A DNA stretch of 64,000 nt from the NCBI GenBank assembly GCA_900100325.1, contig LT629697.1, positions 1,671,423 through 1,735,422 on the forward strand, read 5' to 3'. The notes under the pieces were generated by a model. That model was not told the origin of the DNA, did not search any database, and was given only the letters and a program-made list of their open reading frames with translations. Both the position numbers and the translations under genes were made by a program. This DNA comes from Frankineae bacterium MT45. Its GTDB lineage: Bacteria > Actinomycetota > Actinomycetes > Mycobacteriales > Jatrophihabitantaceae. This document shows positions 184 through 9,038 of this stretch, piece after piece; positions within the stretch are counted from its first letter, which is position 1; each line of letters opens with the position of its first letter.

Positions 184-600
184 TTACAGGGGAATCTCGT
201 AGACGATGAAGCCGGAGTTGCTGGCGACATGGTCGTAGAGGCGGCGGGCTGTGCTGTTCGAGTCCCGGGTCAGCCAGTAGACGCGGCTGCATTCGCGGTC
301 GCGCGCCCAGTCGGTGACGGCACCGATCAGGGCCCGGCCGACCCCCTGGCCCCGCGCCTCCGGGATCGTGTACAGATCCTCCAGGTAGCAGACGTCCGGT
401 GCCGTCGTGCTGGCGTGGACGAGGAAGTGCGTCAACCCGACGAGGCGCCCGTCGATCGTCGCCCCCAGGACATGCATGACACTGTCCTGCTGGAACAAGT
501 CCCAGGCCCGGTCGTAGGTCGACTCCTCATAACGCTGCTCGTAGAAGTCGTTGTACGCGACGAAGAGTCGCTGCCATTCGGGTCGATCATCCGCGGCCAA
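184..600 (-). CDS. GNAT-family N-acetyltransferase
   Basis: A 138-residue protein with the GNAT fold. Motif A is clear: LEDLYTIPEARGQGVGRALI, with the acetyl-CoA pyrophosphate-binding RGQGVG, followed by the C-terminal N-S-T-A-R-x-L-Y helix that is typical of small-molecule acetyltransferases. The frame is open upstream of the TTG used here (600). A GGGAG sequence lies a little further upstream, so the true start may be a few codons earlier. It follows the secreted protease gene (stop at 633) with almost no gap and is probably cotranscribed with it. The substrate is unknown. Confidence 0.8.
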   Translation of the reverse strand: MAADDRPEWQRLFVAYNDFYEQRYEESTYDRAWDLFQQDSVMHVLGATIDGRLVGLTHFLVHASTTAPDVCYLEDLYTIPEARGQGVGRALIGAVTDWARDRECSRVYWLTRDSNSTARRLYDHVASNSGFIVYEIPL

Positions 601-632: not shown

Positions 633-3600
633 TCAGGCCCCCACACGGAAGGTGAAGGGCACCGACGCCACCTCGTCGGCGAAGCCGGAGGTGCCGGCCG
701 CAGCGAACGGCTGGAGCGTGTCGACGAAGATCGTGCCCTGCTGCAGCGAGCCGACCGATCCGCTCGGCTTCAGGTGCAGGGTCACCGTCGCACTACCGCC
801 GGCCGGCACGGTCACCGGAGTGGCGGCCGGCGCCGATGTGGAGACGGTCGCCAGCAGTGGGTCGCCGGTGCTTGAGGTGTAGTCACCGTAGAACGTCCGG
901 GCCAGAATCGTCGCCTGCATGCTGACCGATCCGACGGGCGAACCGTCGGCCGGAGCCGGACCGATGAGTGACGGGAAGGCCGCCCAGAGCGCAGAGGCGA
1001 TCGGCGAGGCGGTGTGAACCGCGGTGGCGCCGGTGCCGGTGGTCGACTCGATGTCCGGGTTGTTCGGCGCATTCAACGCCGTCGGGCTGTCCAGCGGCAT
1101 CACGTCGAAGGTGATCGGGTCGGTCGCCGAGGCACCGACGACCAGCTTCGATCCCTCGGTCGGAACCAGCCAACCCGGTACTGATTCGCTCGGCAGCGGC
1201 AGCGCGATACTCGCCGTGAACTGATCACTGGAGGCCGCCTCGGTCGCGACCAGCGGGAAGGTCTGCTGCGACGTGCCGCGCGGGTCGACGAAGTACGTCT
1301 GATCCTGCGGGCCGGTGTTGTGGATCGTGATCGTCTGCGTCGATCCGTTCTGCTTGCTGATCACCGCATTCGAGCTGTTCGGCACCCCGGAGGTGAAGAC
1401 CGGCGTGGTCGAGAGCGAGGCGATACCCGAGTAATTCTCGGGCAGTTGCGTGCCCAGGACCGGGTTCACGAGCTCCAGGGTCAACTCCCAGATGCCGGGC
1501 GTCGGGTTGGCCCTAGTCGCCTCGATGCCGGTGCCGGTGGTGCCGTCCGCCGCTGCATTGACGACGGTCGAGAGCGGCTCGCCCGAGGGGTCAGAGAGGT
1601 GCGCGACCACCTCGTTCGGGGTTGCGCCGGCCACCTTGATCTTGAAGTCGAGTCCGGCCGCCCCCCGCGGGACGCTGAAGAGGTACGTCTTCGTCTGCGC
1701 GGGGGAGAAGTCGCGACCGTTGGCCGTGGTGAATGTGCCGTCAAACGTGGTCGGTCGTCCCGCCTGCAGTGCTAGCACAGTTCTGGTCACGATCGAGGCC
1801 GTGGTGGTCTGACCGAAGGCGCCGGTGAGTACCAGCGACGAGGCCGCCGTCGTGGTCCTCGGCGAATGCGTGGTGACGGTCAGGGTGCGTGACTGACCGG
1901 CGGCCAGGCTGAAGCTGGACGGGCTCACCTGGCCGGCCGAGCCCGCCTGGTAGGAGGTGGTGGTCAGGGTGGCCGGACCGGTGTATCCGGCCGAGGTGGC
2001 CGCCGTCCAGATGATTGCGGTCCACGTGCCGGGGGCCGGCGAGTGGAGCTCGACCCGGCCGAAGTTCCCAGTGCCCTGGGGCAGCGAGTAGCCACTGAAC
2101 GTTCCCTGCGGATCGAGCAGACTCAGCCGCACGATCTGCCCGGGCCCGTTCCAGCTCACCGTCGAAGCGAGTCGATCCACCCCTGGTGCCACCTTGAATG
2201 TGGTGGTCACATACGAGCGGGTTATCCCGATGGCGTCGACGAAGGTGTGTGTCGGCGCCGAAGCGGAGAGGTTCACCGTCTTCTGCTGGGACGCGGTCTG
2301 GGTGCTCACGTTGCGCAGCACCGCACTGACCCGCTGGGTGCCGACACCGTCATTGGTTACCTTGAATTGCTTGGTGATCGTCCCCTCCGGGCCGGCTACT
2401 CCATTGAGCTGGGTCTGGTCCAGCAGCAGGTTCTGGCCGGTGTTGGTGGCCGTCCCGAGGCTGGCCGCGAGCTGCACCGCCCGGTAGCTGTTGAGCAGAC
2501 CAGAGCCCTGCAGGTCAGCCGGCAGCCCGAGGTCGTCCGCGCTGCTGTCGAGCACCTGCCGGACCTGCTGCGGGGTCGGCGAGGCACCCTGGTGGGTCTT
2601 GCGGTAGGCCTGTACGACCAGTGCCGCGGCCCCGGACGTCAGGGGCGCCGACTCGCTCGTCCCGCCGAATACCTCGAGGTTGCTCGGGTCGCCCTTGTTG
2701 TCGAAGCAGTCGTACTGCGGGTCACCCGAGGGGAGCGTCCGGTCCGAGCAGAGCGACCAGTTGAGGTCACCGGGGGCCGTCAGATCCTGCACCCGCTGGG
2801 TCTGCGAGATGCCACCCGAGGAGAGCGACGAGAGCTGGTTGCTCGTGTACTTGCCGTTGCCCAACTGGAAGCCGTACGCGGTCTGCTGCGCGTAGATCTG
2901 CTCGGCCGTGCTGGCCCCGGCGCCGATGACCCAGGGGTCGGTCGCGGCAGTGCCGATGGTGTTGCCGCCACCCGCGTCCCCGGTGCTGGCGATCACCGTC
3001 ACGCCGGCGTCCACCGCGTCGTGGTTGAAGGCGCTGATCGGGTCGGTCGCGTTGTCCGGGTAGGGGTTGGAACCGAACGATTCATTGAGGATGTCGACGT
3101 GATCGACGTTCACCGCCCAGTCGATGGCCTGGATGATGGTCGAGGTCGGCGCGGTGAGCAGCGCGTTGGAGAAGACCTTCAGCGCGACCATCGACGCACC
3201 GGGCGCCATCCCCTCGACGCGGATGTTGCAGCCGGCCGGGAGGGGATGGGCCGGGTTCATGAAGGTGGAGATGTCGTAGGTCTCGCGTCCCTGGGCCGCG
3301 ATCGAACTGGCGTCACCGAAGGCCTCACCGCCGGAGGTCGGGGCGTTCGTCCCGTCTCCGGAGAAGTCCTGGTAGTCGGTGATGACGTGCGAGCCGTCGG
3401 CCCGGATGAAGTCCGGCTGGTTGATGTCCAGTCCGTCGGCGATGAAGCCGACTTTTACCCCTGTTCCGTCATACCCCAGCGAGCGCGCCGTGGGCGTCTG
3501 GGCGTTGTCGGAGTCGGTGTGGGTGAGCGCCAGCGCCTCCGGCTCCAGCAGTGGCTTCGACGGGTCGGTCGGGCAGATGCTCTGCGCCGGTGTGGCCGTC

Positions 3601-4016
3601 CCGGCGGCGGCCTTTACCGCCTTCTCGCCAGCGGCGGAGAGCTTCCACTGCAGATCAGGGACGACCTCAGCCACCGCCGGGTCGCTCTGCAGCGCGGCGA
3701 CGGCGCTGCTCGGAAGGGTGGCCGCGACCGCATTCAGGGTCTTATAGGTCTTGGTGGTCTTGCCGCCGAGCTTTCCGATGCGCTGCCGCAGCGGGGCTTG
3801 GTCGGCGCCGACGGCTGCGGCTCGCCGGCTCATCCCGGCCTGCGTGGCGGGCTTGTCCGTGTGCTGATCGCGCAGGAGCACGATGACGTTCTGGGTAGCG
3901 CCGACGGCGTCAGCTGGTGGGGCCAATGCCACCGCGACGAGCCCGGCTCCTCCCATCGCGATTGTGGCTAGCAGGGCAGTAGCGGACTTCGCGGAGCAGA
4001 GTCTCATCTTCGTCAT
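633..4016 (-). CDS. Secreted subtilase-fold serine protease with sedolisin-like catalytic residues
   Basis: A 1127-residue exported protease. Residues 1-38 form a signal peptide ending ADA. Residues ~42-125 resemble the I9 inhibitor prodomain of subtilisins (DPAVAEVVPD near its end). The catalytic domain spans ~180-475: the first Asp motif is FIADGLD (D194), the serine motif is GGTSESAP (S454). The subtilisin His motif (HGTxVAG) is absent; the equivalent place reads GEAFGDASSIAA, giving an E231-x3-D235 pair, and the oxyanion-hole Asn is replaced by Asp in STGDAGG (D347). Glu/Asp/Asp/Ser is the arrangement of S53 sedolisins. About 650 C-terminal residues look like beta-sandwich modules, partly P-domain-like. 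No cell-wall anchor was seen, so it is probably released. It may still be scored as S8 by profile searches. Confidence 0.85.
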   Translation of the reverse strand: MTKMRLCSAKSATALLATIAMGGAGLVAVALAPPADAVGATQNVIVLLRDQHTDKPATQAGMSRRAAAVGADQAPLRQRIGKLGGKTTKTYKTLNAVAATLPSSAVAALQSDPAVAEVVPDLQWKLSAAGEKAVKAAAGTATPAQSICPTDPSKPLLEPEALALTHTDSDNAQTPTARSLGYDGTGVKVGFIADGLDINQPDFIRADGSHVITDYQDFSGDGTNAPTSGGEAFGDASSIAAQGRETYDISTFMNPAHPLPAGCNIRVEGMAPGASMVALKVFSNALLTAPTSTIIQAIDWAVNVDHVDILNESFGSNPYPDNATDPISAFNHDAVDAGVTVIASTGDAGGGNTIGTAATDPWVIGAGASTAEQIYAQQTAYGFQLGNGKYTSNQLSSLSSGGISQTQRVQDLTAPGDLNWSLCSDRTLPSGDPQYDCFDNKGDPSNLEVFGGTSESAPLTSGAAALVVQAYRKTHQGASPTPQQVRQVLDSSADDLGLPADLQGSGLLNSYRAVQLAASLGTATNTGQNLLLDQTQLNGVAGPEGTITKQFKVTNDGVGTQRVSAVLRNVSTQTASQQKTVNLSASAPTHTFVDAIGITRSYVTTTFKVAPGVDRLASTVSWNGPGQIVRLSLLDPQGTFSGYSLPQGTGNFGRVELHSPAPGTWTAIIWTAATSAGYTGPATLTTTSYQAGSAGQVSPSSFSLAAGQSRTLTVTTHSPRTTTAASSLVLTGAFGQTTTASIVTRTVLALQAGRPTTFDGTFTTANGRDFSPAQTKTYLFSVPRGAAGLDFKIKVAGATPNEVVAHLSDPSGEPLSTVVNAAADGTTGTGIEATRANPTPGIWELTLELVNPVLGTQLPENYSGIASLSTTPVFTSGVPNSSNAVISKQNGSTQTITIHNTGPQDQTYFVDPRGTSQQTFPLVATEAASSDQFTASIALPLPSESVPGWLVPTEGSKLVVGASATDPITFDVMPLDSPTALNAPNNPDIESTTGTGATAVHTASPIASALWAAFPSLIGPAPADGSPVGSVSMQATILARTFYGDYTSSTGDPLLATVSTSAPAATPVTVPAGGSATVTLHLKPSGSVGSLQQGTIFVDTLQPFAAAGTSGFADEVASVPFTFRVGA

Positions 4017-4124: not shown

Positions 4125-5660
4125 TCACTGAGGGGCGCCGTCGAGCTGCGGCGCGGGCTGAGCAGCCCGGTAGCGGGGTAGCCAGCGCAGTGCCAACAAC
4201 CCGGCGAAGCCCATAATCCCCGCCATTACATAGAGAACCGTGCGGGTGGCCTCGGCGAAGTCGAGTTGGATGAAAGGCGGGATGCTCTCCCCGGACCCGC
4301 CGCCGCCGAGCTGCGACACCTTCGCCGCGACATCATTGGCCCGCCCTGACGGCACTCCCTGCGCGATCAGCGACGCCGCGATCTGCGTCTGCATCACGGT
4401 CACGAGGATGGTGCCCAGGATGGCCAGTCCCAGGCTGGCGCCGTAGTTGCGCACCGTCTGGGTGATGCCGGTGGCCTCGCCGTAGGCCGAGCTGGGTGCA
4501 CGATTCAGAGCGTCCGTGTTGGCCTGTCCGAGCATCAGGCCCATGCCGGCGCCGGCCATGATGATGCACCAGATCTGCTGCCCCATCACCAGCGTCGTCA
4601 CCCGGCCGGCCCAGAGCGCCAGGCCGACACAGGCCACCACGCAGCCGATGACGATCGGGCGCCGGGCGCCGCCGCGATCGAGCATCCGCCCGCCGATCTG
4701 CGCGGCGACTACGAAGCCGATGAAGAAGTACAGCAGGGTGAGGCTGGCCTTGGACGCGGCGTAGCCCAGCGAGATCTGCGAGTACTCACTGGCGAAGAAG
4801 AAGACCGGCACGAAGACCATCATCGCGACGGTGAGTATGACGTTCTGGGCCAGGAAGACGCGATCCTGAAAGATCTTCACGTTGATGAGGGGTGACTCGG
4901 TGCCCTGCTCGACCCGGAAGAAGACGAGGAGCAGCGCCGCCCCGACGACGATGCAGGCGATGGTGAGCGGGTTGCTCCAGCCCCAGCGGGCCGCCTGCTG
5001 GAAGCCGAAGACGCTGAGGCTCACCCCGAGCACGATCAGAACGAGGCCGCGGTAGTCCATCGGGGCCGGGTGCCGGCTGCTCGCCGGCTTCGCGATCACG
5101 ATGAGCAGCAGTGCGATGACCGCGACCGGGATGTTGACCCAGAAGATGGCCCGCCAGGTCCAGAGGGTGAGGTAGCCGCCGAGGGCCGGCCCGACCGCAG
5201 TGAGCCCCCCGGCGACGCCGAAGAAGAGCGCAAGTGCCTTGCCGCGCTCCCTCACCTCATAGCTGTTGAGGACGATGGCCAGCGCGGCCGGGTACATCAG
5301 CGCCCCACCGGCACCCTGTACGGCGCGGAAGGTGACGAGCCAGGCCTCGGCCCAGCGGCCGGTCGGGGTGAGGCCGCAGAGCGCGGAGGCGCCGGCGAAG
5401 ACCAGGATGCCGACGATCACCATTGGGCGGTGGCCGATGGTGTCGGCCAGCCGTCCCCCATAGGCGAAGAGGGCGGCCAGGGTCAGCAGGTAGGCGTTGA
5501 TGGCCCACTGGATTCCGGTGCTGGACAGCCCGAGTTCGCTCTGGATCTTCGGGGCCGCGACGGAGACGATCGTCTGATCGATGAAGGTCATCGCGACCGC
5601 GAAGATCATCGCGGTGAGTACAAGTCCGCGCCCGGTGCCGGTCGCTTCACGGGTTGTCAT
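4125..5660 (-). CDS. MFS multidrug exporter, DHA2 (EmrB/QacA-like) family
   Basis: A polytopic membrane protein of 511 residues, the usual size for 14-helix drug:proton antiporters. The N-terminal motif DQTIVSVAAPKIQSELG is the DHA2 signature in helix 1. GRLADTIGHRPM is the loop 2-3 motif, and GAGGALMYPAAL lies on helix 4. The start at 5660 is preferred over an upstream ATG because GGAGAGGAA lies about 5 bases before it and the protein then begins MTTREATGTGRGLVL, just before helix 1. It lies 50 bp downstream of the azoreductase gene, so the pair may be a small detoxification operon. The substrate is unknown. Confidence 0.88.
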   Translation of the reverse strand: MTTREATGTGRGLVLTAMIFAVAMTFIDQTIVSVAAPKIQSELGLSSTGIQWAINAYLLTLAALFAYGGRLADTIGHRPMVIVGILVFAGASALCGLTPTGRWAEAWLVTFRAVQGAGGALMYPAALAIVLNSYEVRERGKALALFFGVAGGLTAVGPALGGYLTLWTWRAIFWVNIPVAVIALLLIVIAKPASSRHPAPMDYRGLVLIVLGVSLSVFGFQQAARWGWSNPLTIACIVVGAALLLVFFRVEQGTESPLINVKIFQDRVFLAQNVILTVAMMVFVPVFFFASEYSQISLGYAASKASLTLLYFFIGFVVAAQIGGRMLDRGGARRPIVIGCVVACVGLALWAGRVTTLVMGQQIWCIIMAGAGMGLMLGQANTDALNRAPSSAYGEATGITQTVRNYGASLGLAILGTILVTVMQTQIAASLIAQGVPSGRANDVAAKVSQLGGGGSGESIPPFIQLDFAEATRTVLYVMAGIMGFAGLLALRWLPRYRAAQPAPQLDGAPQ

Positions 5661-5710
5661 GCGATTCCTCTCCGCTCGTCGGCGCGGCTGGTCCCGGGAC
5701 GCGCTCCCGG

Positions 5711-6373
5711 TTAGGTGGCCGCGGCCGTCGCCGTGGTCGTGGATGCCTGCCACTCGTCACTGCCGGCCAGGGTGCGGGCAGTCTCCAGCGCATTCGCTAG
5801 ATTACCGGGGCGCGTCGGCGGCATATCCATCCCCTCGGCATTGATGAAGGTGAGGTCGGTGATCCCGATCAGACCGAAGATGGAGCGAAGATAAGGCTCT
5901 TGGAAATCCAGGGTGTTCAGGTAGCCGCCGGGCGAGTAGTCGCCCCCACGTGAAGTAACACAGAGCATCTTCTTGCCCAGCACCAACGGGACGAGCTGCC
6001 CGAAGTCGTCGTAGCGAAACGCATAACCGGGCTGGACGATGCAGTCGATGTAGTACTTGAGGGCGTACGGGATGCTGAGATTCCACATGGGCGCCGAAAT
6101 CAAATAGGCGTCGGCCGAGAGAAAGTGCGCGATGAGCGCCTCGATCTGCCGCCACGACTCAATGTGTGCCCGGTCGATCGGTTGTCCCACCATCAGGGTG
6201 TATTTGACTTCGATATTCTCCCCGGCCACCGCCGGAAGTTCGTGGTTGTACAGGTCGATGACGTCCAATTCGACCTCGCCTCGCTCCTGCAGGCCCTCCA
6301 GAAATGCATCCGCCACCTGGACTGAGGTGGAGTTCTCACCGCGAGGCGAGGCGATGATGTGCAGCAGCTTCAT
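5711..6373 (-). CDS. azoR: FMN-dependent NADH-azoreductase (AzoR-like, flavodoxin-2 fold)
   Basis: A 220-residue homologue of AzoR, which uses NADH and FMN to reduce quinones and azo compounds. The protein begins MKLLHIIASPRGENSTS, the FMN-phosphate loop. It contains SAPMWNLSIPYALKYYIDC, the FMN-contacting segment, and VTSRGGDYSPGG. The ATG at 6373 is chosen because GGAG lies 8 bases before it; the longer open frame adds 18 non-homologous residues. The C-terminal ~15 residues are a Thr/Ala tail. An AT-rich stretch upstream (6430-6550) is the probable promoter region. The natural substrate is unknown. Confidence 0.87.
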   Translation of the reverse strand: MKLLHIIASPRGENSTSVQVADAFLEGLQERGEVELDVIDLYNHELPAVAGENIEVKYTLMVGQPIDRAHIESWRQIEALIAHFLSADAYLISAPMWNLSIPYALKYYIDCIVQPGYAFRYDDFGQLVPLVLGKKMLCVTSRGGDYSPGGYLNTLDFQEPYLRSIFGLIGITDLTFINAEGMDMPPTRPGNLANALETARTLAGSDEWQASTTTATAAAT

Positions 6374-6552
6374 ATGAGCTCCGAATTCCCGAGGGCGACG
6401 AAGCGAATGGCCGCTTCTGGCGTGCATTGAACCAGACTCCGGTAAACAATAAATAGCGCCGCCGCTTAATATCTCGCTATTTCCGCTCGTCGGGATCGCT
6501 CAGTTAGTAGTCAATTACCGTTCGCATTCAAGAATTCGAAAATAGGGCCGCG

Positions 6553-7601: not shown

Positions 7602-9038
7602 TCAGATGAGGTTCTGCGAGAGGCCGCGCTTGACGAACTGCCCGTGGCCGGCGCGGCCGTGGAAGGCACCGTCGTCGACGATGATCGACCCGCGAGACAG
7701 GACGGTGTCGACGTGCCCGTCGATCTCGAAGCCCTCGTAGGCGGAGTAGTCCATGTTCATGTGGTGTGTCTTGCCGACACCGATGCTGGTGTGCCCGTTC
7801 GGGTCGTAGATCACCACGTCGGCATCCGCGCCGGGGGAGATGATGCCCTTGCGCGGGTACATGCCGAACATGCGAGCCGGTGTGGTGCAGCAGACCTCCA
7901 CCCACCGCTCCAGCGAGATCTGTCCCGACTTCACGCCCTGGAACATGAGATCCATCCGGTGTTCGACCGAACCGATGCCGTTGGGGATCTTGGCGAAGTT
8001 GCCGATCCCCATATCTTTCTGGCCCTTCATGCAGAACGGGCAGTGGTCGGTGCTCACCGTCGTCACGTCGCCGGTGCGCAGGTAGCGCCAGAGTTCGTCC
8101 TGGTGCCCCTCGGCCCGTGAGCGCAGCGGCGTCGAGCAGACCCACTTCGCCCCCTCGAAGGCACCCCATTCGCCACCCTGAGCACCCAGTTGCTCCTCGA
8201 GTGAGAGGTAGAGGTACTGCGGGCAGGTCTCGGCGAAGACGTTCTGCCCACGGCCGCGGGCGGCGGCGATCTGCTCCAAGGCCTGCTTGGCCGAGACGTG
8301 CACCACGTAGAGTGGGGCGCCGGTGACGTCGGCCAGCATGATCGCCCGGTGCGTCGCCTCCTCCTCCAGCTGCCAGGCCCGGGATGTACCGTGAAAATAG
8401 GGGGCTGTGTCGCCGCGGGCCAGCGCCTGCGCGACGAGCACGTCGATGGCGATGCCGTTCTCGGCGTGCATCATCAGCAGTGAACCGGTCTCGGCCGCGG
8501 TCTGCATGGCCCGCAGGATCTGACCGTCCGTGGAGTAGAAGACGCCCGGGTAGGCCATGAAGAGCTTGAAGCTGGTGACGCCCTCGTCGACGAGTTCGGT
8601 CATCGCCTTGAGCGCATCCTCGTCCACGCCGCCGATGATCTGGTGGAAGCCGTAGTCGATGGCGCACTGGCCGGCCGCCTTGCCGTGCCAGGCAGCGAGC
8701 GTGTCCTGCAGGCGTTCGCCGGGCGTCTGCACGACGAAGTCGATGATCGAGGTGGTGCCGCCCCAGGCCGCCGCTGCGGTCCCGGTGGCGAAGGTGTCCG
8801 AGGCTTCGGTGCCACCGAAGGGCATCTGCATGTGGGTGTGGCCATCGACCCCGCCCGGGATGACGTACTTCCCGGTGGCGTCGATGGTCACGTCCGCCGT
8901 CGCGGCAAGATCGGCGCCGAGAGCGGTCGAGCCCGGCTGCAGCACCGCCACGATCGTCTCGGCGTCGATGAGCACGTCCAGCGGCTGCGAGCCGGTACTG
9001 GAGACCACCGTGCCGCCGTGGATGAATGTCGTCGTCAT
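7602..9038 (-). CDS. hydA: Dihydropyrimidinase / hydantoinase
   Basis: A 478-residue cyclic-imide amidohydrolase. It opens dihydrouracil, dihydrothymine or 5-substituted hydantoins to N-carbamoyl amino acids. The metal ligands can be placed: DGHTHMQMP (about H67 and H69), TSFKLFMAYPG with the lysine that is carboxylated (about K158), MMHAENG (H191), VVHVSAKQA (H247) and VSTDHCPF (D331). YPGVFYSTDG contains the Tyr that contacts the substrate ring. Length matches the family. It begins 10 bp after the beta-ureidopropionase-like gene ends, so the two consecutive steps are encoded together. The substrate range cannot be decided from sequence. Confidence 0.92.
   Translation of the reverse strand: MTTTFIHGGTVVSSTGSQPLDVLIDAETIVAVLQPGSTALGADLAATADVTIDATGKYVIPGGVDGHTHMQMPFGGTEASDTFATGTAAAAWGGTTSIIDFVVQTPGERLQDTLAAWHGKAAGQCAIDYGFHQIIGGVDEDALKAMTELVDEGVTSFKLFMAYPGVFYSTDGQILRAMQTAAETGSLLMMHAENGIAIDVLVAQALARGDTAPYFHGTSRAWQLEEEATHRAIMLADVTGAPLYVVHVSAKQALEQIAAARGRGQNVFAETCPQYLYLSLEEQLGAQGGEWGAFEGAKWVCSTPLRSRAEGHQDELWRYLRTGDVTTVSTDHCPFCMKGQKDMGIGNFAKIPNGIGSVEHRMDLMFQGVKSGQISLERWVEVCCTTPARMFGMYPRKGIISPGADADVVIYDPNGHTSIGVGKTHHMNMDYSAYEGFEIDGHVDTVLSRGSIIVDDGAFHGRAGHGQFVKRGLSQNLI

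What the first reader, a model, noticed from the sequence alone, without database searches (positions are those of the whole stretch)
633..4016. Subtilase-type secreted protease with a sedolisin-type active site
The protein has an I9-like prodomain and S8-type domain order, but where S8 enzymes have His in HGTxVAG it has E231-x3-D235 (GEAFGDASS), and where S8 has the oxyanion Asn it has D347 (STGDAGG). The Ser motif GTSESAP is intact. Glu/Asp/Asp/Ser is the S53 sedolisin set, whose enzymes use a different, S53-type propeptide and work at acid pH. This looks like an evolutionary intermediate or a convergent change within S8, and predicts acid-active proteolysis.
Basis: partly seen in the sequence, partly recalled or inferred. 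Interest (0 to 1): 0.75.

Follow-up and report, generated by a model that had tools for sequence, protein, structure and literature searches.

The report
Subtilisin-bodied protease with sedolisin active site
This is a large secreted bacterial protease whose body, prodomain and C-terminal part belong to the subtilisin (S8) family but whose catalytic residues are those of the acid-active sedolisin (S53) family; they are fixed in a large, apparently undescribed family, so it bears directly on how subtilisins and sedolisins are related.

Summary
Observation confirmed. The gene lies on the minus strand (633-4016, 1127 aa). E231-x3-D235, D347 and S454 are where stated, and the subtilisin Asp32 column is Ala (A193). 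This is a family trait: in 81 relatives (minimum pairwise identity 45%) A193, E231, D235, D347 and S454 are all invariant. E231, D235 and D347 are the only invariant acidic residues of the 381-residue domain, and no invariant His can serve as base. Apart from the active site it is S8: I9 prodomain in 73/79 members, sedolisin propeptide (PF09286) in none; AlphaFold model (pLDDT 88) whose 50 best PDB matches are all S8; S8-type C-terminus without the sedolisin calcium motif; accessory region related only to TPP II-like Asp-His-Ser subtilases. Similarity to S53 above the S8 background vanishes when active-site motifs are masked. Most likely it is a secreted serine-carboxyl endopeptidase, active at acid pH, using Ser454/Glu231/Asp235 with Asp347 in the oxyanion hole, in a body of S8 origin. 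Whether the site arose twice or this is a surviving intermediate is not settled: trees depend on alignment and masking. No paper found describes the family. Activity and pH optimum are inferred.

The parts
633..4016 (-). whole gene, 1127 aa, ATG at 4016, stop at 635-633
3906..4016 (-). N-terminal signal sequence, about residues 1-37 (charged start, hydrophobic stretch, PADA-like cleavage site)
   Evidence: read directly from the translation; no signal-peptide program was available
3642..3905 (-). I9-type prodomain, about residues 38-125; modelled beta-alpha-beta-beta-alpha-beta
   Evidence: PF05922; secondary structure of model m86958d12bc85
3576..3641 (-). low-confidence linker between prodomain and catalytic domain, about residues 126-147; presumed maturation site
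   Evidence: model residues 95-107 (protein 131-143) have pLDDT below 50; role inferred
2457..3575 (-). peptidase domain of S8 fold, about residues 148-520
   Evidence: PF00082 93.8 bits; Foldseek
3438..3440 (-). A193: Ala in the column of subtilisin catalytic Asp32
3324..3326 (-). E231: Glu in the column of subtilisin His64, inferred general base
   Evidence: 81/81 invariant; N-terminus of helix 230-240
3312..3314 (-). D235: four residues after E231 on the same helix, inferred catalytic acid, as in S53
   Evidence: 81/81 invariant
2976..2978 (-). D347: Asp in the column of the oxyanion Asn155
   Evidence: 81/81 invariant
2655..2657 (-). S454: nucleophile in GTSESAP, N-terminus of a long helix
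   Evidence: 81/81 invariant
636..2456 (-). C-terminal accessory region, about residues 521-1127, all-beta (pLDDT 91), weakly related to TPP II-like subtilases
   Evidence: fn3_5 28.0 bits, GBD_Hemicentin; model mef136238ccef; TPP II 3lxu in Foldseek; profile hits L028/L029

Best explanation
The gene encodes a secreted endopeptidase of S8 body plan (signal sequence, I9 prodomain, S8 catalytic domain, all-beta C-terminal region like that of TPP II-like subtilases) whose catalytic machinery is that of sedolisins. The prodomain is presumed to assist folding and be cut off in the linker after secretion. Ser454 attacks the peptide bond, Glu231 (in the His64 place) is the general base, Asp235 one helical turn further replaces Asp32 as the charge-relay acid, and Asp347 replaces Asn155 in the oxyanion hole. 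Because carboxylates must be partly protonated for this to work, the enzyme should be active at acid pH (about 3-6) and not at the alkaline pH of subtilisins. The body derives from S8, most probably from the TPP II-like actinobacterial branch. Shown: sequence, conservation, prodomain type, fold similarity, accessory-region relationship. Inferred: activity, roles of the residues, pH range, maturation.
For: Invariance of A193, E231, D235, D347, S454 in 81 members, the only invariant acids being E231, D235, D347. Model pLDDT 88, pTM 0.92, with E231/D235 at the start of helix 230-240 and S454 at the start of helix 453-474. Foldseek top 50 all S8, the best being pro-subtilisins aligned including the prodomain, target-normalised TM about 0.8 for pro-subtilisin E. 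Profile against PDB: the 60 best are all S8. I9 in 73/79, S53 propeptide in 0/79. E-x3-D on one helix plus Asn-to-Asp in the oxyanion hole is what structurally defines serine-carboxyl proteinases (PMC11593635). hhalign score with S8 258 against 134 with S53, and 223 against 78 after masking the motifs. C-terminal region: the only non-family proteins of the reference set hit are L028/L029 (54 and 43 bits), which are D-H-S subtilases, L028 with TPP II as best PDB match; shared AYxxTHxGxxP segment after the Ser helix. K+R 4.0% of the catalytic domain, as in S53 (4.4%) and unlike the nearest S8 (7.7%). A characterised actinobacterial E/D/D/S enzyme, E40, works at pH 3-6 (PMC6739405).
Against: No activity data. 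Distances in the model could not be measured. The sedolisin calcium motif (DxT-x-G-x-N ... GWD) is absent and the acidic residue that S53 keeps in the Asp32 column is Ala here, so the surroundings of the site differ from S53. Catalytic-domain trees do not firmly place the family inside S8. The composition comparison is partly confounded by which genomes supplied the groups.
Confidence: 0.75

Rival explanations
1. Single origin: the sedolisin active site arose once, in a subtilase with an I9 prodomain, and this family is the surviving branch nearest to S53, a true intermediate that kept the old prodomain and C-terminus.
For: In the L-INS-i tree with catalytic columns removed, family + S53 are one side of a branch (78/84); with E-INS-i 969 of 1000 bootstraps; never rejected (AU p 0.62 and 0.35). 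The same substitutions at homologous positions are more economical to explain once.
Against: Support falls to 122/1000 when the flanks of the active-site motifs are also removed, so the signal sits in and beside the active site, where convergence acts. Outside the motifs the family is no closer to S53 than S8 is. The accessory region and the THxGxxP segment tie it to TPP II-like S8. S53 is known from bacteria, archaea and eukaryotes (PMC6278154 and general knowledge), this family was found mainly in Actinomycetota.
Confidence: 0.3
2. Inactive homologue: the His/Asp triad was lost and the protein is a pseudoprotease with a binding role.
For: Classical Asp32, His64 and Asn155 are all replaced; S8 pseudoproteases exist (CspC is among the weak NCBIfam matches).
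Against: All residues of a complete alternative machinery, nucleophile included, are invariant across 81 proteins down to 45% identity while only 29 of 381 columns are invariant; the I9 prodomain is retained.
Confidence: 0.08
3. A fusion: a true S53 catalytic domain joined to an S8 prodomain and accessory domains.
For: S53 motifs next to an I9 prodomain; six S53 genes exist in the same genome.
Against: The catalytic domain itself is S8-like throughout, has an S8-type end (QGxGLLxxxxAV) and lacks the S53 calcium motif found in the own-genome S53s.
Confidence: 0.03
4. Ordinary subtilase chemistry with another His as base, for example H475.
For: H475 is the one invariant His.
Against: H475 lies just past the far end of the 22-residue helix that starts at S454 and the same THxGxxP His is present in L028/L029, which have a normal D-H-S triad; E231 sits in the His64 column.
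Confidence: 0.02

Closest known systems
Actinobacterial TPP II-like S8 subtilases (L028, L029 and kin; best PDB match of L028 is tripeptidyl-peptidase II 3lxu)
   Same: About 1100 aa, secreted, S8 fold, similar C-terminal beta region, in L028/L029 the same AYxxTHxGxxP segment after the Ser helix
   Different: They have the classical D-H-S triad and oxyanion Asn and a large insertion before the His helix
Subtilisin family S8A (pro-subtilisin E 3whi, Tk-SP 3afg)
   Same: Fold, I9 prodomain and its position, GTSxxxP motif, C-terminal part of the domain
   Different: D32/H64/N155 are A/E/D here; a long extra segment lies between the E-D helix and the APGA motif
Sedolisins, family S53 (kumamolisin 1t1e; own-genome L008, L006)
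   Same: E-x3-D on one helix, oxyanion Asp, Ser in GTS; low K+R content
   Different: S53 have the Pro-kuma propeptide or none detected, the C-terminal calcium motif, a short E-D-helix-to-APGA distance, and keep an acidic residue in the Asp32 column in most members
E40, acid glutenase of Actinoallomurus A8 (PMC6739405)
   Same: Actinobacterial, secreted, E/D/D/S set, active at pH 3-6
   Different: 398 aa, assigned to S53 by its authors; sequence not compared here
Sedolisin-like subset with Asp on a beta strand (Siezen, Renckens and Boekhorst 2007, recalled from memory, not in the library)
   Same: Subtilases with Glu in place of His
   Different: There the Asp is on another element, here it is on the same helix as Glu

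Membership tests
S8 (subtilases) | S8 fold and profile PF00082 | tested here: met
   93.8 bits; 79/79 members; Foldseek top 50 all S8. PF00082 also covers S53, so the Foldseek and PDB profile results carry the weight
S8 (subtilases) | Asp-His-Ser triad with oxyanion Asn | tested here: not met
   A193/E231/D347 in those columns
S8 (subtilases) | I9-type prodomain | tested here: met
S53 (sedolisins) | Glu-x3-Asp on one helix, oxyanion Asp, Ser | tested here: met
   definition PMC11593635
S53 (sedolisins) | Pro-kuma propeptide PF09286 | tested here: not met
   0 of 79 members; some own-genome S53s also give no hit
S53 (sedolisins) | C-terminal calcium motif DxTxGxN...GWDxxTGxG | tested here: not met
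S53 (sedolisins) | overall sequence closest to S53 | tested here: not met
   hhalign 134 with S53 against 258 with S8; no S53 among the 60 best PDB profile hits
S53 (sedolisins) | branches with S53 in a tree | tested here: inconclusive
S53 (sedolisins) | acid pH optimum, resistance to classical serine-protease inhibitors | not testable with these tools
   needs purified enzyme
TPP II-like S8 | related catalytic domain and C-terminal beta region | tested here: inconclusive
   C-terminal profile hits L028/L029, 3lxu in Foldseek, first tree 93 SH-aLRT unstarred, not recovered in the later tree

The most novel reading that the evidence does not exclude
A whole protease family independently rebuilt the complete sedolisin catalytic set inside a TPP II-like subtilisin (loss of Asp32, His64 to Glu, position 68 to Asp, Asn155 to Asp), giving acid-active S8-bodied enzymes: a natural repeat of the transition that produced S53. 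If the origin is instead shared, it is the surviving link between S8 and S53.
Probability: 0.55. Interest if true: 0.75.

Novelty: new variant of a known kind. Interest (0 to 1): 0.64.

Why it matters
How the His-based subtilisins and the Glu-based sedolisins are related, and how a catalytic triad can be exchanged within one fold, rests on comparing two families far apart in sequence. This family has one body and the other active site, in many culturable actinobacteria, so the transition can be examined directly by structure, mutation and pH profile. It may also be a source of acid-stable proteases, and it shows that annotation by fold (S8) or by active site (S53) alone would misplace it.

Tried and rejected
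hmmscan of the full-length protein missed PF00082; the isolated domain gives 93.8 bits, so the first result was a search artefact. The first tree put the family beside TPP II-like S8 (93, unstarred) and S53 apart; the constrained tree with S53 then had a higher likelihood, so that placement is not claimed. Three MAFFT strategies failed to put the S53 E-x3-D helix in register with the family, so that region was left out of the later trees. hhalign placed the S53 GExxLD motif on QGRETYD; rejected because that Glu is not conserved. No coordinates of the AlphaFold models could be obtained, so no distances are given. No intermediate active site turned up: family hits score above about 340 bits over the whole domain (lower only for gene fragments) and the next best below about 98 bits. 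A plasmid record with a 57% relative had no annotation at the match. Literature searches found no description of the family.

Full report
What is there. The gene occupies 633-4016 on the minus strand and encodes 1127 residues: a signal sequence, an I9-type prodomain, a low-confidence linker, a peptidase domain (about 148-520) and an all-beta C-terminal region (about 521-1127). In addition the column of subtilisin Asp32 holds Ala193, so all three of Asp32, His64 and Asn155 are replaced (Ala, Glu, Asp), and Asp235 sits four residues after Glu231. This matches the definition of serine-carboxyl proteinases: base and acid at positions 1 and 5 of one helical pentapeptide, and Asn to Asp in the oxyanion hole (PMC11593635).

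Is it more than chance. Whole-domain searches of 101 related genomes found strong relatives (45-93% identity). A scan of genome contigs found 159 relatives, of which 80 were kept, mainly Actinomycetota (Amycolatopsis, Kutzneria, Kitasatospora, Streptantibioticus, Catenulispora, Actinomadura, Solirubrobacter) with some MAGs named Gammaproteobacteria, Dormiibacter and Acidiferrales; several come from bog or palsa samples. In 396 genomes drawn evenly from the phylum 3 had a clear member, in 395 of the class about 8: the family is widespread but thinly spread. In 81 aligned members, 29 of 381 columns are invariant; they include A193, E231, D235, D347 and S454, and E231, D235 and D347 are the only invariant acidic residues. 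The scan patterns covered D235 and D347, but not A193, E231 or S454. Members found without patterns show the same E/D/D/S set, with Thr instead of Ala at 193 in one subgroup.

Body. PF00082 is matched by 79/79 and I9 (PF05922) by 73/79, the sedolisin propeptide by none. The profile against PDB sequences returns only S8 chains among the 60 best. The AlphaFold model (pLDDT 88, pTM 0.92) has 50 best Foldseek matches that are all S8, led by pro-subtilisins aligned over prodomain and peptidase domain. In the model E231 is the second residue of helix 230-240, as His64 is near the start of its helix, and S454 is the second residue of the long helix 453-474, matching the place of Ser221. No distances could be measured. 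The end of the domain is S8-like (QGxGLLxxxxAV) and lacks the S53 calcium motif that the own-genome S53s have.

Relationship to S8 and S53. Profile-profile scores are 258 to canonical S8, 261 to a second actinobacterial S8 group and 134 to S53; with the motif columns masked they become 223, 230 and 78, the last within the range for masked S8 against S53 (61-87). So the similarity to S53 beyond the S8 background lies in the active-site motifs. The C-terminal region, searched as a profile over all S8 and S53 references, hits outside the family only L028 and L029, which are D-H-S subtilases (TPP II is the best PDB match of L028) and share the AYxxTHxGxxP segment; the C-terminal model also finds TPP II by Foldseek, though that match is weak by TM-score. 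This favours an origin of the family from TPP II-like S8.

Trees do not decide. With catalytic columns removed, family + S53 form one side of a branch with 78/84 or 969/1000 bootstraps with another alignment; with wider removal around the motifs this falls to 122/1000 and the AU test does not reject it (p 0.35). An earlier, larger tree put the family beside the TPP II-like group (93, unstarred). Both convergence and shared origin therefore remain open; I favour convergence within S8 because of the full-length architecture and the masked comparisons.

Function. Expected mechanism: Ser454 nucleophile, Glu231 base, Asp235 acid, Asp347 oxyanion, active at acid pH. Supporting but indirect: the catalytic domains are poor in Lys+Arg (median 4.0%, S53 4.4%, nearest S8 7.7%); in 31 genomes all 8 with a family member also have a Pro-kuma S53, against 12 of 23 without (Fisher p 0.028, not corrected for relatedness or completeness). 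The actinobacterial enzyme E40, with the same residue set, works at pH 3-6 (PMC6739405). None of this shows activity for the present family.

Known or new. No paper in the library searched describes the family; MEROPS and CDD could not be consulted, so members may be listed there without comment. A 2007 survey of prokaryotic subtilases (recalled, not in the library) described a sedolisin-like subset whose Asp lies on a strand, which differs from the same-helix arrangement here. I file it as a new variant of a known kind: clan SB, S8 body, S53 active site, full member of neither family by the tested features.

Noticed in passing
G000 (own genome) C1: 473963-475486, 4102303-4103565, 1641531-1642064, 1658837-1659382, 1511275-1511736, 1222060-1222611 (L006/L044, L008, L205-L208): The same genome carries six sedolisins: two with the Pro-kuma propeptide and four without a detected propeptide; several have long C-terminal extensions. 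Two of the four lie within 30 kb upstream of the window.
   Followed up: partly
G001:C1:4301788-4302929 (same genus): The same-genus copy (88-93% identical) is read in two overlapping frames, which suggests a frameshift in the gene or an assembly error.
   Followed up: no
window 633-4016: hmmscan of the full-length 1127-aa protein against Pfam misses Peptidase_S8, although the domain alone scores 93.8 bits; automatic annotation of such proteins may be affected.
   Followed up: partly
L022-L025 (family members): A divergent subgroup with VTTN-like sequence in place of IADG at the Asp32 region, so that no acid is left at 193 or 194, while E/D/D/S is kept.
   Followed up: no
window 184-600, 4125-5753, 5711-6427, 7602-9038: Neighbouring minus-strand ORFs look like a GNAT acetyltransferase, an MFS transporter, an azoreductase-like protein and a dihydropyrimidinase (by eye, not searched); no obvious link to the protease.
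   Followed up: no
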